From Halomonas socia (GTDB taxonomy: Bacteria > Pseudomonadota > Gammaproteobacteria > Pseudomonadales > Halomonadaceae): 64,000 bases of DNA. Under the pieces are notes generated by a model that searched no databases, was not told the DNA's origin, and was given only the letters and a program-made list of their open reading frames with translations. The position numbers and the translations under genes are program-made. The stretch covers positions 2,294,001-2,358,000 of the forward strand of contig NZ_CP048812.1 in the NCBI RefSeq assembly GCF_010977575.1, given 5' to 3'. Shown here piece after piece: positions 36,368-52,421 of this stretch; the first letter of the stretch is position 1, and each line of letters begins with the position of its first letter.

Positions 36368-37660
36368 ATGCCGTTGCGTCTCTACCGCGGCGATCTGCTG
36401 CTGATCGCTGCGCTGCTGTTGCCGCTGGCGATTGCCGGGCCGAGGTTGGGTTGGCCGCCGGGTGAGGCGGCAGCGCTGCTGGGCTGGGTGGGGCGAGTCA
36501 GTGGCATTCTGGGGCTTGCCATGCTGCTGGTGACGGCGGCCTTGAGCATTCGTCTGCCGGGGCTCGACCGCTGGTTCGGCGGACTCGACCGGCTCTGGTG
36601 GCTGCACCGGCTGCTCGGCTTCGCTGCCTTCGTGCTGATTATGCTGCATGTGCTAGCGCTGGGCCTGGTACGGGTGCCGGCCGGCGTCGACGTGGCGGTA
36701 CTGACGCTGTTCCCGCCGCTCTCGCAGTTGGCGCTGTGGAGCGGTTGGCTGGCGTGGCTGGCAATGGTGATCTTCCTGGCGCCGACCTTCCAGTTCTTCG
36801 GGCGCCTGGACTACCAGCGCTGGAAGCGCCTGCATCTGCTCTCGGCGGCGGCCTTGCTGCTGGCGCTGGGGCATGCCCTGCCGCTGGCCGGCGAGACCTG
36901 GCCGTGGTGGCTGCTCGGCGCCCTGGGCGCCGGGGCCATCGTATGGCGCAAGCTGCTGTCGCCGTCGCTTGCCCGTCACCCTTATTGGGTGGAGAGCGTC
37001 GCGCCGCTGGCCCGCGGCGTGGTGGAAATTGCGCTGCGCCCGGAGGGCCGTGCGCTGGCCTATCGCCCTGGTCAGTTCGTCTATCTCACCCCGCTCGACG
37101 AGTCGCTCAGCGCCGGCCGTGGCGAGGAGCACCCCTATACCATCGCTTCGGCACCGCATGACCTGCTGCTGCGGGTCGGTATCAAGGATCTCGGCGACGC
37201 CAGCCACGCCCTGCAGACGGTCAGCGTCGGCAGCCGGGCGATGTTGGAAGGGCCCTATGGCGACTTCTTCGCCGCGGACTATCCCCAGCGCGATGCGCTA
37301 TGGCTGGGTGGGGGTATCGGCATCACGCCGTTCGTCAGTGCGGCGCGGGGCATGGCTGCGGCGGACGAGGGACGCGGCGTGCAGCTGTTCTACCTGGCCA
37401 ATGGCCCTGACCGTGCCTACTACCTCGAGGAGCTCACCCGCTGCGCCGGGGAGGTCGAGCGCTTCACGGTAACGGCCCACTTCTATCGCGAGCTGGGCCC
37501 GCTGGCCGAATCCTTCCTGCGTCACCACTGCCCGGACTACGCCCACCGAGAGATCTACCTGTGCGGCCCGCCCGGGATGATTGGCCACCTGCGCGACCTG
37601 CTTGACGCCCAGGGCGTGCCGGCCGCGCGTATCCACTGCGAGGTCTTCGATTTCCTATGA
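36368..37660 (+). CDS. Ferric reductase-like transmembrane flavoprotein (NAD(P)H oxidase/ferredoxin reductase type)
   Basis: This 430-residue protein has a six-helix ferric-reductase-like membrane domain (about 1-215) with paired haem-ligand histidines in LHRLLGFAAFVLIMLHVLALG and RLHLLSAAALLLALGHALPL. A cytoplasmic FAD/NAD(P)H module follows (GQFVYLTP, HPYTIASAP for FAD; LGGGIGITPF and LCGPPGM for nucleotide). It would pass electrons from NAD(P)H through flavin and haem to the periplasmic side. The ATG at 36368 has GAGGAG upstream. It overlaps the next gene, a cytochrome b5/FMN-binding protein, by four bases. Confidence 0.9.
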   Translation: MPLRLYRGDLLLIAALLLPLAIAGPRLGWPPGEAAALLGWVGRVSGILGLAMLLVTAALSIRLPGLDRWFGGLDRLWWLHRLLGFAAFVLIMLHVLALGLVRVPAGVDVAVLTLFPPLSQLALWSGWLAWLAMVIFLAPTFQFFGRLDYQRWKRLHLLSAAALLLALGHALPLAGETWPWWLLGALGAGAIVWRKLLSPSLARHPYWVESVAPLARGVVEIALRPEGRALAYRPGQFVYLTPLDESLSAGRGEEHPYTIASAPHDLLLRVGIKDLGDASHALQTVSVGSRAMLEGPYGDFFAADYPQRDALWLGGGIGITPFVSAARGMAAADEGRGVQLFYLANGPDRAYYLEELTRCAGEVERFTVTAHFYRELGPLAESFLRHHCPDYAHREIYLCGPPGMIGHLRDLLDAQGVPAARIHCEVFDFL

Positions 37661-38499
37661 GCAAGATCGCCTATAGCGCCTTCATCGCCTTCCTGGCCAG
37701 CATCGGCACCCTGGTGTCGGTGCATGCACTGTCCTCGGACGAGGAGGTCGATAGCCCGCGTGAGGCGCGTGATATCACCCTCGACGAGCTGGCCGAGCAC
37801 GACAGCGCCGAGAGCTGCTGGAAGGCCATCCACGGCGGCGTCTACGACATCACCGACTATGTGCCCAACCACCCCACCGAGAAGGAGGTCATCCTCGAGT
37901 GGTGCGGCCGCGAATCCAGCGAGGCGTGGGACAACAAGCGTCCCGGGCGGCCGCATAGCCCGGGTGCCGAGCGCCAGCTGGAGAACTATCGCATCGGGCG
38001 CCTGGTCGACGACCAGGGCGAACCGCTCGAGCCCGCGGCTGCCGCGCCCGAGCAGCAGAGCGAGGCGCCGGCGGATGCCGTAGATGACGAGGTGGGCCTC
38101 GATGAGGCGGATACGCGGCTGGCCAAGGCGCTGCTCAGCGGGCACTATCCCGACGGTCGCTATCGCGGGGTGTTCAGCGACGGCGGTGAAATGCAGGTCA
38201 ACGTGCAGTTCGACCTACGCGACGGCCGGATCGGCAGCCTCAGCTATCGCCACCTGGCCTATGCCGGCACGAATTATCGCAGGCTCGACGAAGATGACGA
38301 GCTCTACCCGGTGCTGGAGCAGCATCGTCAGCTTGGCGAGGCGCTGGAGGGGCGTGAGTTGCATGAGATTTTCCTGCTCTACACGTCGCAGCGGCTGGCC
38401 CATGACGTCGACGGCTACAGCGGCGCCACGTTGCGCGGCAACAAGGTGCACTCGGCGATGCGCGACGCCCTCAACCGCGGTGTCTATAGCTGGCCGTGA
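37657..38499 (+). CDS. Periplasmic cytochrome b5-like / covalent FMN-binding domain protein
   Basis: This 280-residue protein has an N-terminal signal or anchor (AFIAFLASIGTLVSVHAL), a cytochrome b5-type domain at about 40-115 (NHPTEKEVILEWCGRE with His in place of the usual HPGG, and the second His in RPHSPGAERQLENYRIG), an acidic Ala-rich linker, and a C-terminal FMN-binding domain at about 150-280. The latter holds DGYSGATLRG, an ApbE-type flavinylation motif in which the Thr would carry FMN. With the flavocytochrome encoded just upstream it can form a chain taking electrons out to the periplasm. The acceptor is unknown. No apbE gene is in the window. Confidence 0.82.
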   Translation: MSKIAYSAFIAFLASIGTLVSVHALSSDEEVDSPREARDITLDELAEHDSAESCWKAIHGGVYDITDYVPNHPTEKEVILEWCGRESSEAWDNKRPGRPHSPGAERQLENYRIGRLVDDQGEPLEPAAAAPEQQSEAPADAVDDEVGLDEADTRLAKALLSGHYPDGRYRGVFSDGGEMQVNVQFDLRDGRIGSLSYRHLAYAGTNYRRLDEDDELYPVLEQHRQLGEALEGRELHEIFLLYTSQRLAHDVDGYSGATLRGNKVHSAMRDALNRGVYSWP

Positions 38500-39352: not shown

Positions 39353-39760
39353 CTATGTACGAAACGTCGGGTCAGGCGTCTCATCATACACCGCCATGGG
39401 CTCGCTCCTGACATCTTCCACCCAACTGGGCGGCTTGAGGTAGCTCCAGGCGGCCTGTACCTGGCCGTGCGAGTCGGCGATGGCCAGTCGTCGGCGACGA
39501 TAACCGTCGCGATCATTGACCCGCTCGAGACGATCGAGTTCATCCAGGGTCGGGGCGTCGACGCGGAACAGCTCGCCCTGAACCTTGAGCCCCTGGCCCC
39601 GGGCGTCGACCAGCACCGGCGAGAAACGCGGGCCGTTGAGTACCAGCGGGAAGGGCTCGCAGGTCACCGCCAGGTCGAGGAATTCGGCCTCGCCGAGGTG
39701 GCCGGCGTGGTTGGTGAAGCCGCGCTTGAGGGTGCCGTACACGAATAGCAGATGGGACAT
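39353..39760 (-). CDS. Gamma-glutamylcyclotransferase-family (AIG2/YtfP-like) protein
   Basis: This 135-residue protein has the family opening FVYGTLKRGFTNH (the YGTLK motif) and a downstream LDELDRLERVNDRDGYRRR stretch holding the conserved acid that acts in gamma-glutamylamine cyclotransferases. Relatives cleave gamma-glutamyl amines or remain unassigned (YtfP). A link to the gamma-glutamyl catabolic cluster starting 1.2 kb away is possible but is only positional. It is divergent from the LysR gene. Confidence 0.87.
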   Translation of the reverse strand: MSHLLFVYGTLKRGFTNHAGHLGEAEFLDLAVTCEPFPLVLNGPRFSPVLVDARGQGLKVQGELFRVDAPTLDELDRLERVNDRDGYRRRRLAIADSHGQVQAAWSYLKPPSWVEDVRSEPMAVYDETPDPTFRT

Positions 39761-39855
39761 GGGATCCTCCCGGTCAGGCTGGGCCTGGTCGCCCTTAAAC
39801 GATACTCTGTTGCAACACGTAGTGGGTCAAGGGCAGGTCATTCAAGGACACTGGG

Positions 39856-40815
39856 ATGCGCAGCGGCTTCGGGTTCGATCTACGCAGCATGGAAATCTTC
39901 GTCGAGACCCTGGAGCAGGGCAGCCAGAGCGCCGCCGCGCGGCGCCTGGGTCTCAAGCAGTCGTCGGTGTCTCAGAGCCTGGCTACCCTCGAGGAGGGGC
40001 TGGGCGTCAACCTGTTCAAGCGTAACGCCCGGCCGCTGGAGCCGACCAGCGCCGGGCGCTTCTTCTACGACCGCGCCCGGCGCCTGCTCGACGAGGCGCG
40101 CAGCACGCGCCGCGAGCTGGTTTCCGGGGCCTTCGGCCAACTGCATCAGGTGCGCCTGGCGCTGGTCGACTCGCTGGCCACGGCCGTGGGCCAGCCGCTA
40201 ATCGAGCTGATCAAGCGGCATACCCGTGACTACACCCTGACCACCGGGCTGTCGCATATGCACAGCCACGCCCTGCTGACCCGCCACGTCGATATCATCG
40301 TCTCCGACGACCGCCTCGAGAACTATGATGGCCTCGAGCGCCACGCAGTGCTGCGCGAGCCCTTCGTGCTGGTGGCGCCGGCCAGTTGGTCGGGGCCGCT
40401 CGACAACCTGCGCTGGCTGGCCCGCCAGCTCGATTTCGTGCGCTACACGCCGCAGTCGCTGATCGGCCAGGCCATCGAGCGCCACCTGCGCCTCAATCGG
40501 CTGGAGCTGCCGGCACGGCTGCACCTCGACAACACCTTCGCCGTGCTGCGCCTGGTCAGCGCCGGCGCCGGCTGGACCATCACCACCCCGCTGTGCCTCT
40601 ATCAGGCCGGCCTCGAGACGCTCCAGGTGCGCGTCGCAGCGCTGCCAGTGGCGCCCCTGCAGCGCGAGCTGACGCTGGTTTCGCGGCGCGACGAACTCGG
40701 TGACCTGCCCGCTCAGCTGGCCCGCGATGCCCGCCGCCTGCTGGAGATTCGCTTTCGTCAGGAGCTCGACCGCGGCCTGCCGTGGCTCTCCTCCGAGGTC
40801 TCCACCCAGCCCTGA
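39856..40815 (+). CDS. LysR-family transcriptional regulator
   Basis: This 319-residue regulator has an N-terminal winged helix at about 8-66 (LRSMEIFVETLEQGSQSAAARRLGLKQSSVSQSLATLEEGLGVNLFKR) and a C-terminal periplasmic-binding-protein-like effector domain. GGGATG-type context precedes the ATG. It lies directly upstream of, and in the same direction as, the TRAP/glutamine-synthetase-like cluster (155 bases gap), so it is the likely regulator of that cluster. LysR proteins usually sit divergent from their targets; here the arrangement is tandem. Confidence 0.92.
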   Translation: MRSGFGFDLRSMEIFVETLEQGSQSAAARRLGLKQSSVSQSLATLEEGLGVNLFKRNARPLEPTSAGRFFYDRARRLLDEARSTRRELVSGAFGQLHQVRLALVDSLATAVGQPLIELIKRHTRDYTLTTGLSHMHSHALLTRHVDIIVSDDRLENYDGLERHAVLREPFVLVAPASWSGPLDNLRWLARQLDFVRYTPQSLIGQAIERHLRLNRLELPARLHLDNTFAVLRLVSAGAGWTITTPLCLYQAGLETLQVRVAALPVAPLQRELTLVSRRDELGDLPAQLARDARRLLEIRFRQELDRGLPWLSSEVSTQP

Positions 40816-40970
40816 GTGTGGGCATTGCAGCGTTGCGAGTGCGCCTTCGGCGTGCACTATCGATTTTTCCTATAGCAACGGCGTCGGTGCGACCGATGCT
40901 CTTTGCCAGATGCCGAATCCGCGTCCAAGACTGAAAGTCATTCGATGTGCGACGCGGGAACTGCAACCCA

Positions 40971-41498
40971 ATGCCAACAACAATAAGCGCCTATGTACGC
41001 TGGGTAGAGCGCCTCAACCGCGGGGTGGGGCGGCTGGTCATGTACATGATCTTCCTGATGATGGGGCTCTTGCTGTACGCCTCCTTCTCGCGCTCGGTGC
41101 TAAACGCGCCGCTGCTGTGGGGGGTGGAGATGTCGCAGTTCATGCTTGCCAGCTACTACCTGTTGGGCGGTGCCTACGCCATGCAGATGGGCGCTCATGT
41201 GCGCATGGATCTGTTCTACAGCCGCTGGTCGCCGCGCACCCAGGCCGCGGTGGATGCCGTCACCATCCTGTTTCTGATCACCTTCCTGGTCACCCTGCTG
41301 CTGGGCGGCATCTCCAGCACCCATTACGCGCTGGAGTATGGCCAGCGCAATCACTCCTCCTGGGCGCCGCCGCTGGCGCCGATCAAGCTGATCATGTGCT
41401 TTGGCATCGTGCTGATGCTGCTGCAGGCCTTCGCCACCTTCTTCCGTGATCTGGGCGCGGCGCTGGGTCGCCCCATCGACGAGGAGGGCGAGGCATGA
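40971..41498 (+). CDS. TRAP transporter small permease (DctQ family)
   Basis: This 175-residue protein has four hydrophobic helices and the DctQ family motifs LLYASFSRSVLNAPLLWGVEMSQFMLASYYLLGGAYAMQMGAHVRMDLFY. The ATG at 40971 has GGGA 11 bases upstream and gives a sensible start MPTTISAYVRW; a GTG at 40947 is an alternative. First gene of a Q-M-P-ordered TRAP system that heads the gamma-glutamyl catabolic cluster. Confidence 0.88.
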   Translation: MPTTISAYVRWVERLNRGVGRLVMYMIFLMMGLLLYASFSRSVLNAPLLWGVEMSQFMLASYYLLGGAYAMQMGAHVRMDLFYSRWSPRTQAAVDAVTILFLITFLVTLLLGGISSTHYALEYGQRNHSSWAPPLAPIKLIMCFGIVLMLLQAFATFFRDLGAALGRPIDEEGEA

Positions 41499-42814
41499 GC
41501 TACGAGATGATCGCGCTGCTGATGTTCTCGACCATGATGCTGCTACTGTTGACCGGTCAGCGGGTGTTCGGAGTGATCGGCTTCGTCGGTGCCGCCGCGG
41601 CGCTGCTGCTATGGGGCGACGGCGGAGTGGAGATGCCGTTCAACGCCAGCTTCGTGCTGATGAATTGGTACCCGCTGTTGACCCTGCCGCTGTTCGTGTT
41701 CATGGGTTACATGCTCTCCGAGTCGGGTATCGCCGGCGACCTCTACGAGATGTTCCACGTGTGGATGGGCTCGCTACAGGGTGGCCTGGCGGTGGGGACC
41801 ATCGGCCTGATGGTGGTGGTCTCGGCGATGAACGGCCTGAGCGTGGCAGGCATGGCGATCGGCGCCAGCATCGCCCTGCCGGAGCTGCTGCGCCGCGGCT
41901 ACGACAAGATCATGGTCACCGGGGTGATTCAGGCTGGCAGCTCCCTGGGCATCCTGGTGCCGCCCAGCGTGGTGCTGGTGCTGTACGGTATGATTGCACG
42001 ACAGCCGGTGGGCAAGCTGTGGCTGGCCGGGGTGTTCCCAGGGCTGATCCTGGCGGCGATGTTCGTGATCTACATCGTGGTGCGCTGCCGGCTGCAGCCA
42101 AGCCTGGGGCCGGCGCTGCCCGCCGAGGAGCGCACCATGCGCCTGGGCGCCAAGCTCAAGCTGCTCAGTGCCGGCATCCTGCCGCTGCTGATCTTCTTCT
42201 CGATGACCGGGCTGTTCCTGATGGGCGTCACCAGCCTGGTCGAGAGCGCCGCCTACGGCGCCTTCGCCGCGACCCTGGCGGCGCTGGTCAAGGGCCGCCT
42301 GACCCGGGCGGTGATCGAGGTCACGGTGCGCCGTACCCTGGGCATCAGTTGCATGTTCATGTGGATCATCCTCGCCGCGCTGTGCTTCGGCGCGGTGTTC
42401 GACGGCCTTGGCGCGGTGCGCGCCATCGAGAACGTGTTCCTCGACCGCATGGGCCTCGGCCCCTGGGAGATCCTGCTAATGATGCAACTCTCCTACATCC
42501 TGATGGGCATGTTTCTCGACGACACGGCGATGCTGGTGATCGTCGCCCCGCTCTACGTGCCGCTGGTGGTCAGCCTGGGCTTCGACCCGGTGTGGTACGG
42601 CGTGCTCTACACCATCACCGTGCAGATCGCCTACATGACCCCGCCGTTCGGCTACAACCTGTTCCTGATGCGCGCCATGGCGCCACCCGAGGTGTCGCTG
42701 GGCGACATCTATCGCAGCGTCTGGCCGTTCGTGGCGATCATGCTGCTGGGACTGGGCCTGATCACCGCCTTCCCGCAGTTGGCGCTGTGGCTACCGGAGC
42801 TCTACTACCACTAG
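41495..42814 (+). CDS. TRAP transporter large permease (DctM family)
   Basis: This 439-residue protein has about 12 membrane helices. It includes LTLPLFVFMGYMLSESGIAGDLY, AGSSLGILVPPSVVLVLYG and the late motif QIAYMTPPFGYNLFLMRAMAP, which mark DctM. The ATG overlaps the stop of the small permease (ATGAG). It is the sodium-driven carrier for the substrate captured by the binding protein encoded next. The rest of the cluster suggests an amino alcohol or amine as cargo, which would be unusual for a TRAP carrier. Confidence 0.93.
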   Translation: MSYEMIALLMFSTMMLLLLTGQRVFGVIGFVGAAAALLLWGDGGVEMPFNASFVLMNWYPLLTLPLFVFMGYMLSESGIAGDLYEMFHVWMGSLQGGLAVGTIGLMVVVSAMNGLSVAGMAIGASIALPELLRRGYDKIMVTGVIQAGSSLGILVPPSVVLVLYGMIARQPVGKLWLAGVFPGLILAAMFVIYIVVRCRLQPSLGPALPAEERTMRLGAKLKLLSAGILPLLIFFSMTGLFLMGVTSLVESAAYGAFAATLAALVKGRLTRAVIEVTVRRTLGISCMFMWIILAALCFGAVFDGLGAVRAIENVFLDRMGLGPWEILLMMQLSYILMGMFLDDTAMLVIVAPLYVPLVVSLGFDPVWYGVLYTITVQIAYMTPPFGYNLFLMRAMAPPEVSLGDIYRSVWPFVAIMLLGLGLITAFPQLALWLPELYYH

Positions 42815-42907
42815 GGCACCGCGTACGCCCGGCAACGGGCAAGGAGGAGGATCCGTAAGCAAGCAGTATGGGCAGTGGTAACAACAACAACCAATGGGAG
42901 AAGTATC

Positions 42908-43969
42908 ATGACCGATAACAACAGGCGCAATTTCCTCAAGAAAGCCGGGGTGGCCACCGCCGCCACGGTGGGTGCGGCTACCGTCGGCGCGCCATACGTG
43001 CATGCCCAGTCGAGCCCGATCCGCTGGCGCATGCAGACCTACGCCGGCCCGGCGCTGGCGGCCCACGTCATCAAGCCCTCCATCGACGCCTTCAACAAGG
43101 CTGCCAACGGCGAGATGGAGATCGAGCTCTACTACGCCGACCAGCTGGTGCCCACCGGCGAGCTATTCCGCGCCATGCAGCGTGGCACCATCGATGCGGT
43201 GCAGAGCGACGATGACTCGATCAACGCTCCGGTGGATGTCTCGGTGTTCGGCGGCTACTTCCCATTCGCCTCGCGCTACAGCCTCGACGTGCCGGCGCTG
43301 TTCCATCACTACGGCCTCAAGGAGATCTGGGAAGAGGCCTACGGCGAGGTGGACGGCGTGACCTGGCTCGGCTCCGGCTCCTGGGATCCTTGCAACTTCG
43401 TGACCCGCGAGCCGATCCGCAGTCTCGAGGACCTGCGCGGCAAGCGCATCTTTACCTTCCCCACCGCCGGGCGCTTCCTGAGCCGCTTCGGGGTGGTACC
43501 GGTGACCCTGCCATGGGAGGACATCGAAGTCGCCATGCAGACCCGCGAGCTGGACGGGATCGCCTGGGCCGGCATCACCGAGGCCTATACCGTGGGCTGG
43601 GCCGATGTCAGCAGCTACTACCTGACCAATAACATCTCCGGCGCCTGGGCAGGCTCCTACTTCGCCAACAGCGATCGCTGGAACGAGGTGCCCGAGCACC
43701 TGCAGACGCTGTTCAAGCTGTGCATGGATAATTCGCACTACTACCGGCAGCACTGGTATTGGTGGGGCGAGGCCCACTACCGCACCACCGGCGGCAAGCT
43801 CGAGCTCACTTCGATCCCCGAGGAGGAGTGGCAGACCCTGGAGGACGAGGCGCTGGCGTTCTGGGACGAGATCGCCGAGCAGAGCGAGCGTAGTGCCAAG
43901 GTTGTGCAGATCCTCAAGGATTATCGCCAGACCATGCAGCAGGCAGGGCCTCCCTATCGCTACAGTTGA
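42908..43969 (+). CDS. TRAP transporter substrate-binding protein, Tat-type signal
   Basis: This 353-residue DctP-type binding protein begins with a twin-arginine leader NRRNFLKKAGVATAATVGAA, so it may be exported folded. Family features are RWRMQTYAGPALAAHVIKPSIDAF and RGKRIFTFPTAGRFLSRFG, the latter in the ligand-arginine region. The tryptophan-rich part HYYRQHWYWWGEAHYR near residue 290 is unusual and could form an aromatic pocket for a cationic ligand; this is inference. GGGAG lies upstream of the ATG. A strong hairpin lies between it and the glutamine-synthetase-like gene. Confidence 0.92.
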   Translation: MTDNNRRNFLKKAGVATAATVGAATVGAPYVHAQSSPIRWRMQTYAGPALAAHVIKPSIDAFNKAANGEMEIELYYADQLVPTGELFRAMQRGTIDAVQSDDDSINAPVDVSVFGGYFPFASRYSLDVPALFHHYGLKEIWEEAYGEVDGVTWLGSGSWDPCNFVTREPIRSLEDLRGKRIFTFPTAGRFLSRFGVVPVTLPWEDIEVAMQTRELDGIAWAGITEAYTVGWADVSSYYLTNNISGAWAGSYFANSDRWNEVPEHLQTLFKLCMDNSHYYRQHWYWWGEAHYRTTGGKLELTSIPEEEWQTLEDEALAFWDEIAEQSERSAKVVQILKDYRQTMQQAGPPYRYS

Positions 43970-43978
43970 GGAACCTCA

Positions 43979-44003
43979 GGAGGCGGGCTACTGGCCCGCC
44001 TCC
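43979..44003 (+). terminator. Strong hairpin downstream of the TRAP binding-protein gene
   Basis: A perfect 10-base inverted repeat (GGAGGCGGGC and its complement) with a 5-base loop lies 10 bases beyond the stop of the binding-protein gene. No T run follows, so it may be a partial terminator or a 3' mRNA stabiliser rather than a full stop; either would raise binding protein over the downstream enzymes. Confidence 0.6.
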
Positions 44004-44045
44004 CGTATGCCCGTCAATGACCTTTGGCCAATTTAGGAAGCTGCC

Positions 44046-45425
44046 ATGAGTCAATTACTACCCCGCCACATCACCAGCGCCGACGAGGCCCGGCGCCTGG
44101 TTGAGGAGCGCGGCCTTACCCACGTCAAGGTCGGCATGTTCGACATGGACGGCGTGATGCTCGGCAAGTACATGCATCGCGACAAGTTCTTCCATGCGCT
44201 GGAGGAGGGCTTCGCGTTCTGCGACGTGGTGCTGGGCTGGGACAGCAAGGACGTGCTCTACGACAACGTCAAGTATACCGGCTGGCACACCGGCTACCCG
44301 GATGCCCAGCTGCGCATCGTCCCCGAGAGCTGCCGCGAGGTGCCGGCGGAGGGCGACATGCTGCTGTTTCTCACCGAGTTCAGCGGCGCCGCCGAGGCGA
44401 TCTGCCCGCGCGGGCTGCTGCGGCGGGTACTCGACCAGACCGGCGAGATGGGCTTCAGCGCCCACGGCTCGCTGGAGTACGAATTCTTCATGTTTCGCGA
44501 GACGCCGGAGTCGATTCGCGAAAAGGGCTTTCGCAACCTGACCCCGCTGACGCCGGACATGATGGGCTACTCGATGCTGAGAAGCTCGGTGCATGCCGAG
44601 CTCTACCATGAGCTGCTGGCGCTATCCGAGGCCATGGACTTTCCCATCGAGGGGCTGCATACCGAGACCGGCCCCGGGGTGCTCGAGGCCGCGATCGGCG
44701 TCGACGGCGCATTGGCCGCCGGCGACAAAGGCGCGCTGTTCAAGACCTTCACCAAGGTGTGGGCACAGCGTCGCGGCCTGATGGCCACCTTCATGGCCAA
44801 GTGGTCGCCGGACTACCCGGGCCAGAGCGGCCATATCCACCTCTCGCTGTGCCATGCCGACAGCGGCGAGGCGGCCTTCTTCGATGCCGACAAGCCCTAC
44901 TGCATGAGCGATATCCAGCGTCACTTCGTGGCCGGCCAGCAGCAGCTGATGCCCGAGTTCCTGGCCATGTTCGCGCCCACCATCAACAGCTATACGCGGC
45001 TGATTCCCGGCTTCTGGGCGCCCACCGACGCCACCTGGGGCGTCGAGAATCGCACCACCGCGCTGCGGGTGATCCCCGGCAGCGCCAAGTCCCAGCGCGT
45101 CGAATACCGCCTAGGCAGCGCCGATGCCAACCCCTACCTGGCGCTGGCCGCGGCCATCGGCGCGGGCCTGTACGGCATCCAGCAGCGCCTCGAGCCCGAC
45201 GAGCAGGTGCGCGGCAATGCCTACGAGCTCGACCACCCCGAGCACCAGGCGCTGCCGCGGACCCTGTGGGAGGCCGCCCAGCGGCTCAAGGCATCGCAGC
45301 CGGCGCGGGCGCTGTTCGGCGACGACTTCGTCGAGCACTTCGCGGCGACCCGCGAGTGGGAGGAGCGCGAATTCCGGCGCCACATAACCGATTGGGAGTT
45401 GGATCGTTACTTTGAAATTATTTAA
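44046..45425 (+). CDS. Glutamine-synthetase-family gamma-glutamyl-amine ligase
   Basis: This 459-residue enzyme has the glutamine synthetase catalytic domain (SLEYEFFMFRE metal ligands; TETGPGVLEAAI; GHIHLSLCH; NRTTALRVIPG; RVEYRLGSADANPYLALAA). Members of this branch (PuuA, IpuC, GlnA3/4 types) join glutamate to an amine using ATP, and are not for ammonium assimilation. Together with the alcohol and aldehyde dehydrogenases and the amidotransferase-type hydrolase downstream, the likely role is gamma-glutamylation of an imported amine or amino alcohol, an inference. GGAAGCTGCC context precedes the ATG. Confidence 0.9.
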   Translation: MSQLLPRHITSADEARRLVEERGLTHVKVGMFDMDGVMLGKYMHRDKFFHALEEGFAFCDVVLGWDSKDVLYDNVKYTGWHTGYPDAQLRIVPESCREVPAEGDMLLFLTEFSGAAEAICPRGLLRRVLDQTGEMGFSAHGSLEYEFFMFRETPESIREKGFRNLTPLTPDMMGYSMLRSSVHAELYHELLALSEAMDFPIEGLHTETGPGVLEAAIGVDGALAAGDKGALFKTFTKVWAQRRGLMATFMAKWSPDYPGQSGHIHLSLCHADSGEAAFFDADKPYCMSDIQRHFVAGQQQLMPEFLAMFAPTINSYTRLIPGFWAPTDATWGVENRTTALRVIPGSAKSQRVEYRLGSADANPYLALAAAIGAGLYGIQQRLEPDEQVRGNAYELDHPEHQALPRTLWEAAQRLKASQPARALFGDDFVEHFAATREWEEREFRRHITDWELDRYFEII

Positions 45426-45614
45426 GCGCCAAGCGCCAAGCGGCGCCGGGGGCAGGCAAGAGCGAAGCTAATTCTTCAGGGAAGAAGAATGGAGCGCCCA
45501 GGGATGGGTTTACAGCGTCTGCGCGGTGGCCTGTCGCCGGGGTAGCCGCGGGCCGAGTGCCGGATAGAAGCGAACCGAGCCTTGTCATTCGTTACAGGAA
45601 GGAAAGAGAAGCGT

Positions 45615-47000
45615 ATGGCCATACAGAAAACGATATCCCCCGTCGACGGCACGGTCTACGTCGAGCGGGAGCTGGCCGATCCGGCGCAGATCGAGGCCAC
45701 GCTGTCGCGGGCGGCCAGCGCCCAGCGCAGCTGGTGCGCAGTGCCGATCGCCGAGCGCGGTCGGCTGTGTTCGGCGATGGTCGATGCCTTCGTCGCCCGG
45801 CGCGATGAGCTCGCCACTGAGCTGACCTGGCAGATGGGCCGTCCGATCGCCGCCGCCGGTGGTGAAATCGGCGGCTTCGAGGAGCGCGCCAGGGGCATGA
45901 TCGGCCTAGCCGAGGCGGCGCTGGCGCCGCTCCACCTGCCCGACAAGCCGGGCTTTACCCGCTATATCACCCGCGAGCCGCTGGGCGTGTCATTCATCGT
46001 CGCGCCGTGGAATTTTCCGTACATGACCGCGGTGAACGCCATTGTGCCAGCGATCATGGCCGGCAATACGGTGATCCTCAAGCACTCCGCCCAGACCCCG
46101 CTGTGCGCCGAACGTATCCAGCAGGCCTTCGATGCGGCGGGTCTGCCCGAGGGGGTGTTCCAGCATCTGCACCTGTCGCATGACGCTACCGAACAGCTGG
46201 TCCGCGACCGGCGCATCGATCACGTCTCCTTCACCGGCTCGGTGGCCGGTGGCGCGATGGTCGAGCGCAACGCGGCGGGACGCTTCATCGCCACCGGCCT
46301 GGAGCTAGGCGGCAAGGATCCGGCCTATATTCGTGGCGACGTGGACCTCGATGCCGCGGTGGAAGGGGTGATGGACGGCGCCTTCTTCAACTCTGGGCAG
46401 AGCTGCTGCGGCATCGAGCGCATCTACGTCGACCAGGCAATCTTCGACGCCTTCGTCGAGCGCGCGGTGGCCTGGGTCAAGCAGCTGCGGCTCGGCAACC
46501 CCGGCGACCCGGCCACCACCCTCGGCCCGCTGGTGCGCCCGGCGGCGGCGGACTTCGTGCGCGGCCAGATCGAGGAGGCGGTGAGCGCCGGGGCGCGGGC
46601 CTGGATCGACCCCGGCGACTATCCGCTGTCGGTGCCGGGCAGCGCCTACCTGGCGCCGCAGCTTCTCACCGGGGTCAATCACTCGATGCGGGTGATGAGC
46701 GAAGAGAGCTTCGGGCCGGTGGTGGGTATCATGCCGGTGGCCAGCGACGACGAGGCCGTGGCGCTGATGAACGACAGCGCCTTCGGGCTTACCGCCGCGG
46801 TCTTCACTCGCGACATGGCGGCCGGCGAGCGGCTGGCTCAGCGCCTCGAGGCGGGTACGGTATTCACCAATCGCTGCGACTACCTCGACCCCGAGCTGGC
46901 CTGGACCGGCGTCAAGCAGTCGGGGCGTGGCTGCTCGCTGTCGCGGCTAGGGTACGAGACACTGACCCGGCCCAAGTCTTTCCACCTCAAGCACGCCTAG
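45615..47000 (+). CDS. Aldehyde dehydrogenase
   Basis: This 461-residue NAD(P)-dependent aldehyde dehydrogenase has the general-base Glu in TGLELGGKDPAYI, the catalytic Cys in FFNSGQSCCGIERIYV, and cofactor-binding stretches VAPWNFPYMTAVNAIVPAIMAGNTVILKHSAQTP and FTGSVAGGAMVE. It would oxidise the gamma-glutamylated aldehyde made by the neighbouring alcohol dehydrogenase. The start MAIQKTIS has GGAAGGAAAGAG upstream and follows a 189-base gap that holds no gene. The next gene is 9 bases away. Confidence 0.93.
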   Translation: MAIQKTISPVDGTVYVERELADPAQIEATLSRAASAQRSWCAVPIAERGRLCSAMVDAFVARRDELATELTWQMGRPIAAAGGEIGGFEERARGMIGLAEAALAPLHLPDKPGFTRYITREPLGVSFIVAPWNFPYMTAVNAIVPAIMAGNTVILKHSAQTPLCAERIQQAFDAAGLPEGVFQHLHLSHDATEQLVRDRRIDHVSFTGSVAGGAMVERNAAGRFIATGLELGGKDPAYIRGDVDLDAAVEGVMDGAFFNSGQSCCGIERIYVDQAIFDAFVERAVAWVKQLRLGNPGDPATTLGPLVRPAAADFVRGQIEEAVSAGARAWIDPGDYPLSVPGSAYLAPQLLTGVNHSMRVMSEESFGPVVGIMPVASDDEAVALMNDSAFGLTAAVFTRDMAAGERLAQRLEAGTVFTNRCDYLDPELAWTGVKQSGRGCSLSRLGYETLTRPKSFHLKHA

Positions 47001-47009
47001 GAGTTGACA

Positions 47010-48191
47010 ATGAGCCAGGATATGAGCCAGTTCAGCATGGGCTGGAACTACCCGTCCAACATACTCACCGGGGTGGGGCGTATCGGTGAACTGCCTGCGG
47101 TTTGCCAGGCGCTGGGGATGAAGGCGCCGCTGCTGATCACCGACCCCGGGCTCGCTAACCTGCCGATGGTGCGCGACATCGTGCTGGCCTGCCATGACAG
47201 CGGCCTGGGCATCGCCGTGTTCAGCGAGATCAAGGGCAACCCCACCGGCAAGAACGTGCTCGACGGCATGGCCGCCTTCCGCGACGGCGGCCACGATGGG
47301 GTGATAGCCTTCGGCGGCGGCTCGGGTCTCGACGCCGCCAAGGCGGTGGCGCTGATGGCCAACCAGCGCGAGGGGCTATCGCTGTGGTCGCTGGAGGATG
47401 TCGGCGACAACTGGAAGAATGCCGACGCTGACGCCATCGCGCCCATCGTGGCGGTGCCGACCACCGCAGGTACCGGCTCGGAGGTGGGCCGCGCCTCGGT
47501 GATCACCGATGAGGTCGAGCACGTCAAGCGCATCATCTTCCATCCCGGCATGGTGCCGGCCACGGTGATCCTCGACCCCGAGCTGACCGCCGGCCTGCCG
47601 CCCACGCTCACCGCCGCCACCGGCATGGATGCGCTGTCCCACTGCCTGGAGGCATGGTGCTCGCCACTCTACCATCCCATGGCCGAGGGCATCGCCGTGG
47701 AGGGCATGCGCCGGGTCTGCCAGTATCTGCCGCGGGCCTACGTCGACGGCAGCGACCTCGAGGCGCGCATGAACATGCTGGTCGCCTCGAGCATGGGCGC
47801 CACCGCTTTCCAGCGCGGCCTGGGCGCCATGCACGCCCTGGCGCATCCGCTGGGGGCGCTGTATGACGCCCACCACGGGACCCTCAATGCGATCCTGATG
47901 CCCTATGTGCTGCGCGCCAATCAGCAGGCGATCGGCGAGCCGATGGTACGCCTGGGGCGCTACCTCGACCTGCGCCAGCCGGGCACCGCAGCGGTGATCG
48001 ACTGGGTGCTGGAGCTGCGCGAGCGGCTGGCGGTTCCGCATACCCTGGCAGCGCTCAAGATCGATACCCAGCAGGCCGACAAGGTCGGGCAGATGGCGGT
48101 GGCCGACCCCTCGTCGGGCACCAACCCGATCGCCTTCGACGCCAATCAGTATCGCGACATCTTCGTCGCGGCGGTGGAGGGGCGTCTTTGA
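47010..48191 (+). CDS. Iron-containing alcohol dehydrogenase
   Basis: This 393-residue group III dehydrogenase has the nucleotide loop FGGGSGLDAAKAVALM, the metal ligands in DPELTAGLPPTLTAATGMDALSHCLEAW (Asp and His) and LAHPLGALYDAHHGTLNAILMPYV (two His). It would convert an alcohol to an aldehyde, here perhaps the hydroxyl end of a gamma-glutamylated amino alcohol. The ATG at 47010 (TAGGAG 6 bases upstream) is preferred over the TTG at 47004. It overlaps nothing; the glutamine amidotransferase follows after 61 bases. Confidence 0.92.
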   Translation: MSQDMSQFSMGWNYPSNILTGVGRIGELPAVCQALGMKAPLLITDPGLANLPMVRDIVLACHDSGLGIAVFSEIKGNPTGKNVLDGMAAFRDGGHDGVIAFGGGSGLDAAKAVALMANQREGLSLWSLEDVGDNWKNADADAIAPIVAVPTTAGTGSEVGRASVITDEVEHVKRIIFHPGMVPATVILDPELTAGLPPTLTAATGMDALSHCLEAWCSPLYHPMAEGIAVEGMRRVCQYLPRAYVDGSDLEARMNMLVASSMGATAFQRGLGAMHALAHPLGALYDAHHGTLNAILMPYVLRANQQAIGEPMVRLGRYLDLRQPGTAAVIDWVLELRERLAVPHTLAALKIDTQQADKVGQMAVADPSSGTNPIAFDANQYRDIFVAAVEGRL

Positions 48192-48252
48192 GCGAGAGCT
48201 GCCAACCGTGGCGGAAAATGTGGAGCCAGACTTGGAAAGAGGAGGCCGGGCC

Positions 48253-48960
48253 ATGCGCATAGGGCTGCTGCAGTGTGACGATGTGGCGCCGGAGTTGATC
48301 GCGACTCACGGCAATTACCCGGCGATGTTCGAGGCGCTGTTCAAGCGCGTCGACCCGAGCCTCGAGTTTCGCGTCTGGCGCTGCCTCGACGGCGAGATTC
48401 CCGACGACGTCGAGACCGCCGATGCCTGGCTGACCACCGGCTCCAAGTTCGGTGTCAACGACGGCCTGGCGTGGGTCGAGTCGCTGTGCGAGTTCGTGCG
48501 CGAGCTGTGGGACGCCGGCAAGCCGCTGGTCGGGGTGTGCTTCGGCCATCAGTTGATTGCCAAGGCGCTGGGCGGTGAGGTGGTCAAGAGCCCGCGAGGC
48601 TGGGGGGTGGGCATGTCGTTCAACTGCGTCAACACGCGAACCGAGTGGATGCAGCCGTGGCAGCCCAATCTCGACCTGCTGGTCAGCCACCAGGACCAGG
48701 TCGAACGCCTGCCGCCGGAAGCGCGGGTGCTGGCCGGCAGCGATTTCTGCCCCTACTACCTGATGCAGGTCGGCGAGCACTTTCTCGGCGTGCAGGGGCA
48801 CCCGGAGTTTGCCAAGCCCTATTCTCATGACCTGATGCAGCTGCGCCGTGAGCTGGTCGGCGAGGCGCGGGTCGACGAGGGGCTCGACTCGCTGGACGCC
48901 CCGCTGAATGCCGAGCTGACGGTGCGCTGGATATTGAACTTCATGCAGCAGGCTCGCTAG
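48253..48960 (+). CDS. Class I glutamine amidotransferase, probable gamma-glutamyl hydrolase
   Basis: This 235-residue stand-alone GATase has the nucleophile elbow VGVCFGHQLIAKALGG (Cys-His) and the catalytic pair in VQGHPEFAK. It resembles PuuD/YfeJ-type amidotransferases which hydrolyse gamma-glutamyl bonds. Within this cluster it would free glutamate and the oxidised acid product at the end of the pathway. The start MRIGLLQ has AGAGGAGG 7 bases upstream; a GTG at 48208 is an alternative. An antiporter gene begins 10 bases after the stop. Confidence 0.9.
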   Translation: MRIGLLQCDDVAPELIATHGNYPAMFEALFKRVDPSLEFRVWRCLDGEIPDDVETADAWLTTGSKFGVNDGLAWVESLCEFVRELWDAGKPLVGVCFGHQLIAKALGGEVVKSPRGWGVGMSFNCVNTRTEWMQPWQPNLDLLVSHQDQVERLPPEARVLAGSDFCPYYLMQVGEHFLGVQGHPEFAKPYSHDLMQLRRELVGEARVDEGLDSLDAPLNAELTVRWILNFMQQAR

Positions 48961-48969
48961 AGTCAAGGT

Positions 48970-50169
48970 ATGACCACGAGCGAATCCTGGCAGTGGCCGA
49001 TGGCCGAGCTCGGCACGGCGTCGGCCAACCTGATCCTGCTGGGTGTGATCCTGGGCGTCAGCATCTGTGTCGATGCGCTGGCCAGGCGTCTGCGTCTGCC
49101 GCGCATTTCGCTGCTGGTGTTGGTCGGTGTGGGCCTGGCGCTGGTTCAGCAGCTGCTGCTGGGCCGCGACGGCAGTGCGCCGCTGGGTGCGATGAGCGAG
49201 CCGCTGATCCACCTGGCGCTGGTGCTGGTCTCCTTCCTGCTCGGCGGCGAGCTGACCCTGGTGCGCCTGCGCCGCAACGGCTGGCTGCTGGTGGTGATCT
49301 CGCTTTTCATCGTATTGAGCGGCGCCCTGCTGGTCGGCGTGGGGCTGTGGCTGCTGGGCTTCCCGCTGGTGGTAGTGGTCGCCCTGGCCGCTATCTCGGT
49401 GGCCACCGAGCCGGCCGAGATCAGCGAGGAAGTCTATGCGCGCGGCGATGATCGGCTGCGCGCGCGGCTGCTGATGGGCATGGTCGCCATCGACGATGCC
49501 TGGGGCATCCTGCTGTTCGGCCTGGCCATGGCGCTGCTCGGCTGGCAGCTTACTGGCGATGGCAGCCTGGCGCTGGCCTATGCCGGCTGGGAACTGGGTG
49601 GTGCGCTGGCGCTGGGCGCTGCCATCGGTCTGCCGGCGGCCTGGCTCACCGGGCGCCTGCGGCCAGGGGAGCCGACTCAGGTCGAGGCGTTTGCGCTGAT
49701 CCTGCTGCTGACTGGTTTCTCGACCTGGTTCGAGGTATCGGGGCTGCTGGCGGCGATGTTTGCCGGCGCCCTGGTGGCCAATCTTTCCTCACACCACACC
49801 CGCTCGTTTCGCCAGGTCGAGCATATCGAGTGGCCGTTTCTGGTGTTCTTCTTCGTGCTCTCCGGGGCCCACGTCGACCTCAGTTATATGGGGGCGGCGC
49901 TGTGGCTGACGCTGGCCTATATCGCGCTGCGTCTGGCCGGGCGTTTCCTGGGCGGAGCGCTGGGCGTGCAACTGGTCGGGCGAGGGGGCGAGCTGCCGCG
50001 GGATATCGGCCTGGCGCTGACGCCCCAGGCCGGTATCGCCATGGGCATGGCGCTGCTGGTGGTCGAGCGATTTCCCGAGTACCGCTCACTGCTGCTCTCG
50101 GCGGTGGTGGCCTCCACCGTGGTCTTCGAAGTGATCGGCCCGTTCCTGATTCGCCGCGTGCTGCGCTAG
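48970..50169 (+). CDS. Cation:proton antiporter (CPA family)
   Basis: This 399-residue protein has about 12 membrane helices and CPA-type motifs: VSICVDALARRLRLPRISLLVLVGVGL, SVATEPAEISEEVYARGDDRLRARLLMGMVAIDDAWGILLF with the Asp pair IDDAW expected of the ion site, and TPQAGIAMGMALLVVE. It would exchange sodium or potassium for protons. It has no C-terminal TrkA-N domain. It starts 10 bases after the amidotransferase gene and may be co-transcribed, though a functional tie is unclear. It is convergent with the metal ATPase, stop codons overlapping. Confidence 0.9.
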   Translation: MTTSESWQWPMAELGTASANLILLGVILGVSICVDALARRLRLPRISLLVLVGVGLALVQQLLLGRDGSAPLGAMSEPLIHLALVLVSFLLGGELTLVRLRRNGWLLVVISLFIVLSGALLVGVGLWLLGFPLVVVVALAAISVATEPAEISEEVYARGDDRLRARLLMGMVAIDDAWGILLFGLAMALLGWQLTGDGSLALAYAGWELGGALALGAAIGLPAAWLTGRLRPGEPTQVEAFALILLLTGFSTWFEVSGLLAAMFAGALVANLSSHHTRSFRQVEHIEWPFLVFFFVLSGAHVDLSYMGAALWLTLAYIALRLAGRFLGGALGVQLVGRGGELPRDIGLALTPQAGIAMGMALLVVERFPEYRSLLLSAVVASTVVFEVIGPFLIRRVLR

Positions 50170-52364
50170 CGGTGATCTCGGTTCACTCGCAGCAGGCGCA
50201 GACCATTGGCCACCACGATCAGGCTGGCCCCCATATCGGCGAACACCGCCATCCACAGGGTGGCATGCCCCGAGAAGGCGAGCGCCATGAATAGCGCCTT
50301 GAGGCCCAGGGCGATGGCGATGTTCTGTAACAGTACCGAGCGCGTGCGCCGCGATAGGCGCAGGAAGTCGGCGAGCCGGCGCGGGTCGTCATCCATCAGG
50401 GCGACGTCGGCGGTCTCGATGGCAGCGTCGCTACCCAGCGCGCCCATGGCGAAGCCGATATCGGCGCGGGCCAGTGCCGGGGCGTCGTTGATGCCGTCGC
50501 CCACCATGCCCACCGGGCCTTGCCGAGCGCGGGCCTCGATCATCGCCAGCTTGTCCTCCGGCAGCAGCGAGCCGTGGGCTTCGTCGATGCCGGCCAGGGC
50601 TGCCACGGCAGCGACGCTCGCCGGGTTGTCCCCGCTCAGCATCAGCGTGGTCACGCCCAGGCGATGGAGTGCCTCGATGGCGTCACGGCTCTCCTCGCGC
50701 AGCGGGTCGCCGACGGCGAACAGCGCCAGGGGCCGGTTCTCCTCGCCGAGGATCACCAGGGTCTCGCCGCGGGCTTCATGCTCGGCCAGGTGGGACTCGA
50801 ACGCGTCGTCCACCGTCGCGAACTGCTGCATCAGCCGACGGTTGCCAAGCCAGACGCGGCCCCCGGCCTGGCATGCGGTCACGCCGCGGCCGGGCAGTTC
50901 CTGCACGTCACTCACGTCCAGCGGCGTGACGCCCTCCGCCTCGGCGGCGCGGGCCAATGCCGCTGCTACCGGGTGCGAGGAGCGAACGGCGAGCCCCGAT
51001 GCCAGGGCCCGCAGCCCGGCCCGCGCCGGCTCGTCCAGTGTCGGGTCGAGGGAGTGCCAGCTGCGCTGCGAGGGGCGGCCCTGGGTGAGGGTGCCGGTCT
51101 TGTCGAAGGCCAGCGTGGCCAGCCGATGGCCCTGTTCGAGCACGTTGCCGCCCTTGATCAGGATGCCCGAGCGTGCGGCGGCGGCCAGGCCGCTGACGAT
51201 GGTTACCGGGGTGGAGATCACCAGCGCGCAGGGGCAGGCGATCACCAGCAATACCAGAGCCCGGTAGATGCCCTCCAGCCAGGCTACCCCCAACAGCAGT
51301 GGCAAGAGGAGTGCCGTAAGCAGTGCGATGGCGAAGATCGTGGGGGTATAGACGGTGGCGAAGCGATCGATGAAGCGTTGGGTGGGGGCGCGGCTGGCCT
51401 GGGCCTGCTCGACGGTATGGATGATGCGGGCCAGGGTAGTGTCGCTCGCCACCCGGCTGGTGCGATAGAGGAACTCGCTGCCTTGGTTGATGCTGCCGGC
51501 GAATACGTCATCCCCTGGTGCCTTGTCCACCGGCAGGCTCTCGCCAGTGATGGGGGATTCGTCCAGCGCTGGCTGGCCCTCTGTCACCTTGCCATCGAGT
51601 GCCAGGCGTTCACCGGGACGCACACGTACCAGGCTCTCGATGGCGATATCGCTGGCTGGCGTGCTGAGGAAGGTACCGTCGGGCTGGTACACGCTGGCGC
51701 TCTCCGGTGCCAGCGAGAGCAGTTCGCGGATGGCGTTGCGGGCCCGGCCCAGCGAGCGAGCCTCGATGCGCTCGGCCAGGGTGAACAGCACCAGTACCAT
51801 GGCCGCCTCGGCCCACTGGCCGATCAGCAGGGCGCCTGTCACCGCCACGCTCATCAGCGCATTGATGTTGAGGGTGCGATGGCGCAGGGCGATAAAGCCC
51901 TTCTTCCAGGTCGGCAGGCCGACCAGGGCGATGGCCGTGAGTGCCAGCGCGGCGGCCAGCCAGGGCTCGGCCAGCACCAGCCAGTGGCTGGCCTCGGCGG
52001 CCAGGGCAAGCATGGCCGCCACGCCGAGCTTCCACCAAGGCTCCTCGTTGCCGGCTGTCGGTGCCGTGCGTTGGGTCGGGTCATCGCGTTCGGCGGTCAT
52101 GCCGGTGGCGGCGACCCGGCGCCGGATGGCCTCTTCCCCGATACCGGTGTGGTGCACGGTGAGCCTGCGCCCGATCAGATCGAAGTCGAGTTGTTCGATG
52201 CCCGGCATGTCCTCCAGTGCCCGGCGCAGCAGTGTCTCTTCGGTGGGGCAGTCCATCGCCTCGATATACAGTTGCAGCGACTGTGTGCCGGGGGGAGGGG
52301 CGTTTCTCTCCGGCGCGGCATGGCGTGCGTCGGGGGCGCTCGAACAGCAGGATCGTTCGCTCAT
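50166..52364 (-). CDS. Heavy-metal P-type ATPase (Cd2+/Zn2+/Pb2+ exporting)
   Basis: This 732-residue P1B-type ATPase expels soft divalent metals. A Cys-rich leader ERSCCSSAP replaces the usual start, then an HMA-like domain (MDCPTEETLLRRALEDM), eight membrane helices, the phosphatase loop ITGESLPVDK, the ion-site CPC in IACPCALVIS, phosphorylation motif DKTGTLTQG and hinge VGDGINDAPALARADIG. The CPC and the DKxxD/N-type late helix region fit the ZntA/CadA group rather than the copper group. MSERSCC was chosen with GGAGT upstream. It is divergent from the CadR-type gene. Confidence 0.92.
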   Translation of the reverse strand: MSERSCCSSAPDARHAAPERNAPPPGTQSLQLYIEAMDCPTEETLLRRALEDMPGIEQLDFDLIGRRLTVHHTGIGEEAIRRRVAATGMTAERDDPTQRTAPTAGNEEPWWKLGVAAMLALAAEASHWLVLAEPWLAAALALTAIALVGLPTWKKGFIALRHRTLNINALMSVAVTGALLIGQWAEAAMVLVLFTLAERIEARSLGRARNAIRELLSLAPESASVYQPDGTFLSTPASDIAIESLVRVRPGERLALDGKVTEGQPALDESPITGESLPVDKAPGDDVFAGSINQGSEFLYRTSRVASDTTLARIIHTVEQAQASRAPTQRFIDRFATVYTPTIFAIALLTALLLPLLLGVAWLEGIYRALVLLVIACPCALVISTPVTIVSGLAAAARSGILIKGGNVLEQGHRLATLAFDKTGTLTQGRPSQRSWHSLDPTLDEPARAGLRALASGLAVRSSHPVAAALARAAEAEGVTPLDVSDVQELPGRGVTACQAGGRVWLGNRRLMQQFATVDDAFESHLAEHEARGETLVILGEENRPLALFAVGDPLREESRDAIEALHRLGVTTLMLSGDNPASVAAVAALAGIDEAHGSLLPEDKLAMIEARARQGPVGMVGDGINDAPALARADIGFAMGALGSDAAIETADVALMDDDPRRLADFLRLSRRTRSVLLQNIAIALGLKALFMALAFSGHATLWMAVFADMGASLIVVANGLRLLRVNRDHR

Positions 52365-52400
52365 GGTAGAACTCCGTGTCATCGCTTATGCTGATGACAC

Positions 52401-52421
52401 ACCCTGTAGTCGCTACAGGGT
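52401..52421. promoter_or_regulatory. MerR/CadR-type operator-promoter between the metal ATPase and regulator
   Basis: The sequence ACCCTGTAG, a 3-base centre and its exact complement CTACAGGGT form a perfect 21-base palindrome. It closely follows the known CadR/PbrR/ZntR operator pattern. On the ATPase strand it overlaps a TTGACC -35, with a poor TGTCAT -10 at a 19-base spacing, the over-long spacing typical of MerR activation by DNA twisting. Matching was done by eye. Confidence 0.85.

What the first reader, a model, noticed from the sequence alone, without database searches (positions are those of the whole stretch)
40971..48960. Possible new gamma-glutamyl pathway for an amino alcohol, with its own TRAP importer
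One direction holds TRAP Q-M-P, a glutamine-synthetase-like ligase, aldehyde dehydrogenase, iron-type alcohol dehydrogenase and a class I amidotransferase, preceded by a LysR regulator. Established knowledge: in the putrescine (Puu) and isopropylamine/alaninol (Ipu) routes and the proposed GlnA4 ethanolamine route, an amine is first gamma-glutamylated, then oxidised, then hydrolysed. Here an alcohol dehydrogenase takes the place of the PuuB amine oxidase, so the substrate should have a hydroxyl group (ethanolamine, aminopropanol, an aminodiol). Inference: import, glutamylation, alcohol to aldehyde to acid, release of glutamate plus an amino acid. A TRAP carrier for such a cation would be new, since TRAP proteins mostly bind carboxylates.
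Basis: partly seen in the sequence, partly recalled or inferred. Interest (0 to 1): 0.78.

Follow-up and report, generated by a model that had tools for sequence, protein, structure and literature searches.

The report
Ethanolamine-eating operon, variant build
These genes most likely let a salt-loving bacterium import ethanolamine, a common membrane-lipid fragment, tag it with glutamate and turn it into glycine; the pathway itself is already published, but this version uses a different tagging enzyme and a different final cutter, a combination also seen in other bacteria.

Summary
In detail: LysR, TRAP Q-M-P, a glutamine-synthetase-family ligase, ALDH, Fe-ADH and a class I amidotransferase lie in one direction. 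The pathway idea is probably right, with ethanolamine as substrate, but not new: the binding protein is 71% identical to a near-identical copy of Csal_0678 (PDB 4UAB), a published ethanolamine-binding TRAP protein, and a homologous Phaeobacter operon (EtoX) appeared in 2023. What differs is the build. The published kind (type B) has another ligase clade (31-34% identity) and a PF05013 hydrolase; the window (type A) has its own ligase clade and a class I amidotransferase whose best solved relative is a gamma-glutamyl peptidase. Two lines point to ethanolamine for type A. In 17 of 19 TRAP-less type A Halomonadaceae genomes an ethanolamine-permease-family protein sits beside the ligase (7 over the model's cut-off, 10 just under). 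And type A hardly ever co-occurs with ethanolamine ammonia-lyase EutB (1 genome, 22 expected, of 201), while a PuuA-like control shows no such exclusion. A PhoX phosphatase lies upstream in 22 of 52 type A genomes. Verdict: new variant of a known pathway; nothing biochemical was tested.

The parts
39856..40815 (+). LysR-family regulator, probably of this operon
   Evidence: PF00126, PF03466; a relative lies in 23 of 80 named type A loci, with either importer; 2 of the 80 (L021, L048) have an RpiR relative instead
40838..40858 (+). terminator-like hairpin after LysR
   Evidence: 5 terminator-like sites in the stretch against 2.6 in shuffles, so weak
40971..41498 (+). TRAP small permease (DctQ / EtoV-like)
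   Evidence: PF04290
41495..42814 (+). TRAP large permease (DctM / EtoW-like)
   Evidence: PF06808; 74-76% identical to the type B permease in 13 Halomonadaceae loci
42908..43969 (+). TRAP solute-binding protein, EtoX/Csal_0678 family, TAT signal
   Evidence: 525 bits to 4UAB/4XF5; 71% identical to L118, itself near identical to 4UAB; GITE glutamate and FTFP stretch as in Csal_0678
44046..45425 (+). gamma-glutamyl amine ligase, type A clade; predicted gamma-glutamylethanolamide synthetase
   Evidence: PF00120, below the cut-offs of glutamine synthetase and gamma-glutamylputrescine synthetase models; GlnA E327 replaced by W; separate clade
45439..45551 (.). copy of a dispersed intergenic repeat between ligase and ALDH
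   Evidence: 41 matches to 45426-45612 in the genome, itself included
45615..47000 (+). aldehyde dehydrogenase; predicted to oxidise the gamma-glutamyl aldehyde to gamma-glutamylglycine
   Evidence: PF00171; motifs; 57% to the ALDH of the Ruegeria sp. B32 type B operon
47010..48191 (+). iron-type alcohol dehydrogenase; predicted gamma-glutamylethanolamide dehydrogenase
   Evidence: PF00465, PF25137; motifs; 51% to the Ruegeria type B enzyme
48253..48960 (+). class I glutamine-amidotransferase-like protein; predicted gamma-glutamylglycine hydrolase
   Evidence: PF00117; motifs; best solved relative by sequence is gamma-glutamyl peptidase 1, 76.5 bits
34167..36191 (-). PhoX-type phosphatase, possible supplier of ethanolamine from phosphoethanolamine (linked, not proven part)
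   Evidence: PF05787; relative 3.2-14.3 kb upstream of the ligase on the opposite strand in 22 of 52 type A genomes

Best explanation
An ethanolamine catabolic operon that works by gamma-glutamylation. Inferred steps: the TRAP system imports ethanolamine; the ligase joins it to glutamate with ATP (gamma-glutamylethanolamide); Fe-ADH oxidises the hydroxyl to an aldehyde; ALDH makes gamma-glutamylglycine; the class I amidotransferase-like hydrolase frees glutamate and glycine. It is a second build of the published C. salexigens/Phaeobacter route, sharing the importer family and the two dehydrogenase families but with its own ligase clade and hydrolase. Shown here by sequence only: gene content, homology, active-site columns, importer exchange, near-exclusion with EutB. 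No enzyme activity, binding or growth was tested.
For: Binding protein: 525 bits to 4UAB/4XF5; 153 positions identical in all of 27 type A and 15 type B proteins, including E225 of GITE, most likely the Glu220 platform described for Csal_0678. Published Phaeobacter operon with EtoX Kd 7.9 uM (that protein itself was not compared here, relatives from Ruegeria and Paracoccus were). Importer exchange: of 52 type A Halomonadaceae genomes 33 have the TRAP protein; of the other 19, 17 have a TIGR00908-family permease 78-267 bases from the ligase. The same family lies, over cut-off, in 3 of 5 EutB loci fetched. Near-exclusion: ligase A and EutB together in 1 of 201 genomes, 22 expected; the PuuA-like control gives 47 against 52.4. 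Own genome: no EutB, TIGR00908 or PF05013 match. Ligase: E327 column is W in 27 of 27 type A rows. GATase closest, among solved structures, to gamma-glutamyl peptidase 1.
Against: I found no experiment on a type A protein. 4UAB's sequence has a second entry, 4XF5, which I recall as an aminopropanol complex, so the amino alcohol may not be unique. The nearest annotated ligase outside the wider clade is called ipuC (39%). Of the 17 adjacent permeases only 7 pass the TIGR00908 cut-off; 10 score 354-371 bits against 381.75, and permeases of that sub-cut-off kind also occur in EutB genomes of genus g4 on other contigs than EutB, so their substrate is not certain. Of 80 named loci, 42 show neither importer in the stretch held. 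The GlnA D50 column, said to be lost in GlnA4 and PauA7, is D in 25 of 27 type A rows, E in 2, in a gapped part of the alignment. Genomes are not independent, so p-values overstate the case, although the exclusion recurs inside genera g4, g19 and g20.
Confidence: 0.8

Rival explanations
1. The same chemistry on a different small amino alcohol (L-alaninol, aminopropanol, serinol) as main substrate, giving another amino acid such as alanine.
For: An ipuC-annotated protein is sister to the wider type A clade; the binding-protein family has a second ligand entry, 4XF5 (its ligand recalled); 10 of 17 adjacent permeases are under the ethanolamine-permease cut-off.
Against: Exchange with an ethanolamine-permease-family protein at the same position, near-exclusion with EutB, and binding-region residues the same as in ethanolamine-binding type B.
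Confidence: 0.12
2. A polyamine (Puu-like) operon.
For: The ligase has a match of 181 bits to the gamma-glutamylputrescine synthetase model; more distant ligase relatives (54%) lie by spermidine/putrescine ABC genes on two plasmids.
Against: Cut-off is 650 bits; no PuuB-type oxidase among the operon genes; the genome has a separate PuuA-like ligase (48% to E. coli PuuA).
Confidence: 0.03
3. A glutamine synthetase with unrelated neighbours.
For: Family membership, TIGR00653 at 210.7 bits; D at the D50 column.
Against: Cut-off 429.15; E327 column is W; another gene of the genome matches E. coli GlnA at 69%; the genes stay together in other genera.
Confidence: 0.01

Closest known systems
Gamma-glutamyl ethanolamine pathway of Chromohalobacter salexigens and Phaeobacter (EtoVWX, ETAGA, GAADDH, GETADH, GGAH)
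   Same: TRAP importer family, ALDH, Fe-ADH, ligase superfamily, order Q-M-P-ligase-ALDH-ADH
   Different: Ligase 31-34% identical and in another clade; hydrolase is class I GATase, not PF05013; LysR here, RpiR there (though 2 of 80 type A loci have an RpiR relative); hydrolase gene last, not first
Streptomyces coelicolor GlnA4 route (passages of PMC6529630)
   Same: Gamma-glutamylethanolamide logic; a glutamine amidotransferase gene (orf5) in the cluster
   Different: Short-chain dehydrogenase, not Fe-ADH; a GlnA4-like ligase of Embleya (L141) falls in the type B clade
Ipu (isopropylamine/alaninol) route
   Same: Glutamylated intermediates (recalled); an ipuC-annotated ligase is sister to the wider type A clade at 39%; glutamine amidotransferase genes in the TC1 cluster
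   Different: The TC1 cluster has P450 and SDR genes and no TRAP or Fe-ADH annotated in the stretch shown
Puu putrescine route (E. coli)
   Same: GS-family ligase, ALDH, gamma-glutamyl hydrolase
   Different: PuuB oxidase and PuuP instead of Fe-ADH and TRAP

Membership tests
Published TRAP-linked gamma-glutamyl ethanolamine pathway (type B) | EtoX/Csal_0678-family binding protein without the carboxylate-binding Arg | tested here: met
   absence of the Arg in Csal_0678 per PMC4646407; the window has the same residues in that stretch; which column is the Arg position is my reading from a recalled SiaP sequence
Published TRAP-linked gamma-glutamyl ethanolamine pathway (type B) | Fe-ADH and ALDH beside the ligase | tested here: met
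Published TRAP-linked gamma-glutamyl ethanolamine pathway (type B) | Ligase orthologous to the one next to the 4UAB-like protein (5DM3-like) | tested here: not met
   31% identity to L118's ligase, which is near identical to 5DM3 and adjacent to a 4UAB-like gene; separate clades
Published TRAP-linked gamma-glutamyl ethanolamine pathway (type B) | PF05013 hydrolase and RpiR regulator | tested here: not met
   class I GATase and LysR; no PF05013 match in the genome
Published TRAP-linked gamma-glutamyl ethanolamine pathway (type B) | Ethanolamine bound, glutamylated and used for growth | not testable with these tools
   needs bench work
Glutamine synthetase | E327 flap glutamate and model score over cut-off | tested here: not met
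   W at that column; 210.7 against 429.15 bits
Glutamine synthetase | D50 | tested here: inconclusive
   aligned column is D, but in a gapped region
Puu pathway | Ligase over the gamma-glutamylputrescine synthetase cut-off and a PuuB oxidase | tested here: not met
   181 against 650 bits; no such gene in the operon
EutBC pathway | EutB in the genome | tested here: not met
   own genome without a match; of 14 control genomes only E. coli rings
GlnA4 route | Ligase orthologous to GlnA4 | tested here: inconclusive
   GlnA4 itself was not compared; a GlnA4-like protein of Embleya groups with type B
Ipu route | Ligase orthologous to experimentally studied IpuC | tested here: inconclusive
   only an ipuC-annotated Paenarthrobacter protein was compared

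The most novel reading that the evidence does not exclude
Type A is a second, separately recruited ethanolamine gamma-glutamylation module (own ligase clade, gamma-glutamyl-peptidase-like hydrolase) that swaps between two unrelated importers, TRAP and permease; in a set of Halomonadaceae it sits behind a PhoX phosphatase, forming a phosphoethanolamine-salvage island that yields phosphate, glycine and nitrogen.
Probability: 0.4. Interest if true: 0.5.

Novelty: new variant of a known kind. Interest (0 to 1): 0.38.

Why it matters
Ethanolamine is a common membrane-lipid breakdown product. The ocean survey I saw counts its uptake through etoX, with about 94% of hits in Alphaproteobacteria (passage of PMC10132767). 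If the reading is right, the type A ligase marks ethanolamine use in Halomonas, Pseudomonas, Microbulbifer, Shewanella, Photobacterium, Legionella and Desulfocapsa relatives (loci), with or without the TRAP importer, and gives a specific function to proteins annotated only as glutamine synthetase (for example). The importer exchange is a natural test of the substrate assignment.

Tried and rejected
The idea that the pathway is new was rejected. The idea that window and C. salexigens-type operons are simple orthologs was rejected. An RNA element in the ligase-ALDH gap was rejected: it folds about as well as shuffles (z -0.73) and is a dispersed repeat. No sigma-70-like promoter was found in 39600-49100. 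A third importer in the two type A genomes with neither TRAP nor permease (G032, G186) was looked for among nine ORFs of the stretches held; none was recognised, and G186's contig ends just after the ligase. In two Pseudomonas loci without a GATase hit (L072, L079) four flanking ORFs gave no amidotransferase or PF05013 match, one an alpha/beta hydrolase. The SBP tree does not split type A from type B at its deep forks, so the importer alone does not tell the types apart. LysR against RpiR does not separate the types strictly either (RpiR relative in L021, L048). Structure prediction was not run, because a 71% identical relative is already solved.

Full report
What is there. The genome is a single 4.75 Mb contig; its ligase is 96% identical to those of Franzmannia pantelleriensis and Halomonas sp. 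ML-15, family Halomonadaceae.

The importer. phmmer against PDB sequences gives 525 bits, E 1e-156, for 4UAB/4XF5 and no other sequence at E 1e-20 or better. Passages of two papers identify Csal_0678 of Chromohalobacter salexigens as an ethanolamine-binding TRAP protein without the usual carboxylate-binding arginine (PMC4646407) and 4UAB as its ethanolamine complex with Glu220 as platform (PMC12410723). A TRAP review calls ethanolamine a particular surprise because of its positive charge (passage of PMC5812351). In the window protein the same stretches read FTFPTAG and GITE; 153 positions are the same in all of 27 type A and 15 type B proteins. That GITE holds Glu220 is my inference from spacing.

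The published pathway. Passages and a table of PMC10132767 (outline, passages; section 8 read) describe a Phaeobacter operon: RpiR, gamma-glutamylglycine amidohydrolase, EtoVWX, ligase, aldehyde and alcohol dehydrogenases, with proteins raised on phosphoethanolamine and EtoX binding ethanolamine at 7.9 uM. A review table (passage of PMC9397018) lists for C. salexigens the families PF00120, PF00465, PF00171 and PF05013. On how well the C. salexigens route is proven the papers differ: PMC10132767 says demonstrated, PMC6529630 says predicted in silico. The primary paper (Vetting et al. 2015) is not held.

Two builds. In Halomonadaceae the binding-protein search (E <= 1e-60) found 53 of 201 genomes, in two blocks: 33 at 86-100% and 20 at 68-71% identity. 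Thirteen of the 20 loci of the second block were read: each carries Q-M-P followed by a ligase 31-34% identical to the window's, an ALDH (52-54%) and an Fe-ADH (50-54%). Locus L118 has a binding protein nearly identical to 4UAB and next to it a ligase nearly identical to 5DM3, with a PF05013 hydrolase and an RpiR-type regulator. Named plasmid copies in Paracoccus denitrificans PD1222 and Ruegeria sp. B32 are annotated with the same order, RpiR and N-formylglutamate amidohydrolase included. I call this type B; hydrolase and regulator were checked in these three loci only. The window is type A. A maximum-likelihood tree of 57 ligases separates A (an ipuC-annotated protein as sister to the wider clade) from B (with a GlnA4-like Embleya protein); the tool warns of long branches at these joins. 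At the GlnA E327 column all 27 A rows have W, all 14 B rows F, E. coli PuuA Y; ten further active-site columns tested (E129, E131, E212, E220, H269, R321, R339, R344, E357, R359) are unchanged in all groups; the D50 column stays D in 25 of 27 A rows and is mixed in B. The hydrolase also differs: PF00117 in A, with gamma-glutamyl peptidase 1 as best solved relative, PF05013 in B; the own genome has no PF05013 match. Not every type A locus shows the GATase: it was recognised in 54 of 80.

What substrate for type A? First, importer exchange. In 80 named loci with ligase A, 20 have the TRAP protein only, 17 an ethanolamine-permease relative only (40% or more to the Oceanimonas one), 1 both, 42 neither within the stretch held (L009 just missed the 40% cut). 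Seven of these permeases were given to NCBIfam: 6 exceed the TIGR00908 cut-off, L009 does not. In the 201 genomes, 17 of the 19 type A genomes without TRAP have such a permease (E <= 1e-80) beside the ligase, at a gap of 78-267 bases; 7 of the 17 are over the cut-off and 10 are under it (354-371 against 381.75 bits). Of the 33 with TRAP only G029 has one. TRAP (either type) and permease co-occur in 1 genome, 26.6 expected. Against this, the sub-cut-off kind also occurs in EutB genomes of genus g4, on other contigs than EutB. Second, near-exclusion: EutB is in 85 of 201 genomes; with ligase A in 1 (22 expected), with type B in 0 (8.5 expected), and A with B in 0 (5.2 expected). A PuuA-like ligase as control is in 124 genomes, 47 of them with EutB (52.4 expected, p 0.14), though it is strongly associated with ligase A (49 of 52), so lineage effects exist. 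The exclusion holds inside genera g4, g19 and g20, which contain both; in g7 the one type A genome (G006) also has EutB. Third, the own genome lacks EutB and the permease, so this locus is its only ethanolamine route among those I searched for. Of 5 EutB loci fetched, 3 carry a permease of the same family, over cut-off.

PhoX. A PhoX protein (PF05787) lies 7.9 kb upstream of the ligase on the opposite strand. Close relatives (74% or more; one, in G170, a partial match at a contig end) lie 3.2-14.3 kb upstream on the opposite strand in 22 of 52 type A genomes; 2 more have it on another contig near that contig's start; 28 lack it, including same-genus G049; 5 genomes have a relative (63-79%) without ligase A (the list of weaker matches was cut). 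It goes with TRAP (22 of 33, the 2 split cases included) rather than with TRAP-less loci (2 of 19, neither with a permease). Phaeobacter PhoX releases phosphate from phosphoethanolamine, but with Km about 0.95 mM, and its deletion mutant reached similar final yields on that compound. Shared ancestry of the region could explain the linkage.

Literature limits. That type A is undescribed rests on search listings and on passages of six papers, in an open-licence library only; Vetting 2015 was not seen.

Judgement.

Noticed in passing
45439-45551: Ligase-ALDH gap holds a dispersed intergenic repeat; the 187-base query finds 41 matches in the genome, itself included.
   Followed up: partly
39353-39760 (-): A GGACT/AIG2-type gamma-glutamyl cyclotransferase gene divergent from LysR; relatives lie near the operon in 5 of 80 named loci (L001, L002, L006, L010, L021). 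Could act on gamma-glutamyl amines.
   Followed up: partly
34167-36191 (-): PhoX phosphatase linked to many type A operons that have TRAP.
   Followed up: yes
36287-38499: Ferric-reductase-like flavoprotein followed by a cytochrome b5 domain protein; the pair recurs upstream in G032 (L160), the reductase also in G186 (L159).
   Followed up: no
   Followed up: partly
L010, L128: Two LysR genes flank the TRAP genes, as if a regulator-plus-importer block had been inserted.
   Followed up: no
50166-52901: P-type ATPase gene (-) divergent from a MerR regulator gene, convergent with the Na+/H+ antiporter gene 48970-50169.
   Followed up: no
52998-54757 (-): Two neighbouring, similar family 3 solute-binding proteins with only about 117 bases between them.
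   Followed up: no
L136, L137, L139, L143: More distant ligase relatives (53-56%) sit by Na+/solute symporter, GMC oxidoreductase or polyamine ABC genes, so the wider clade may cover other amines.
   Followed up: no
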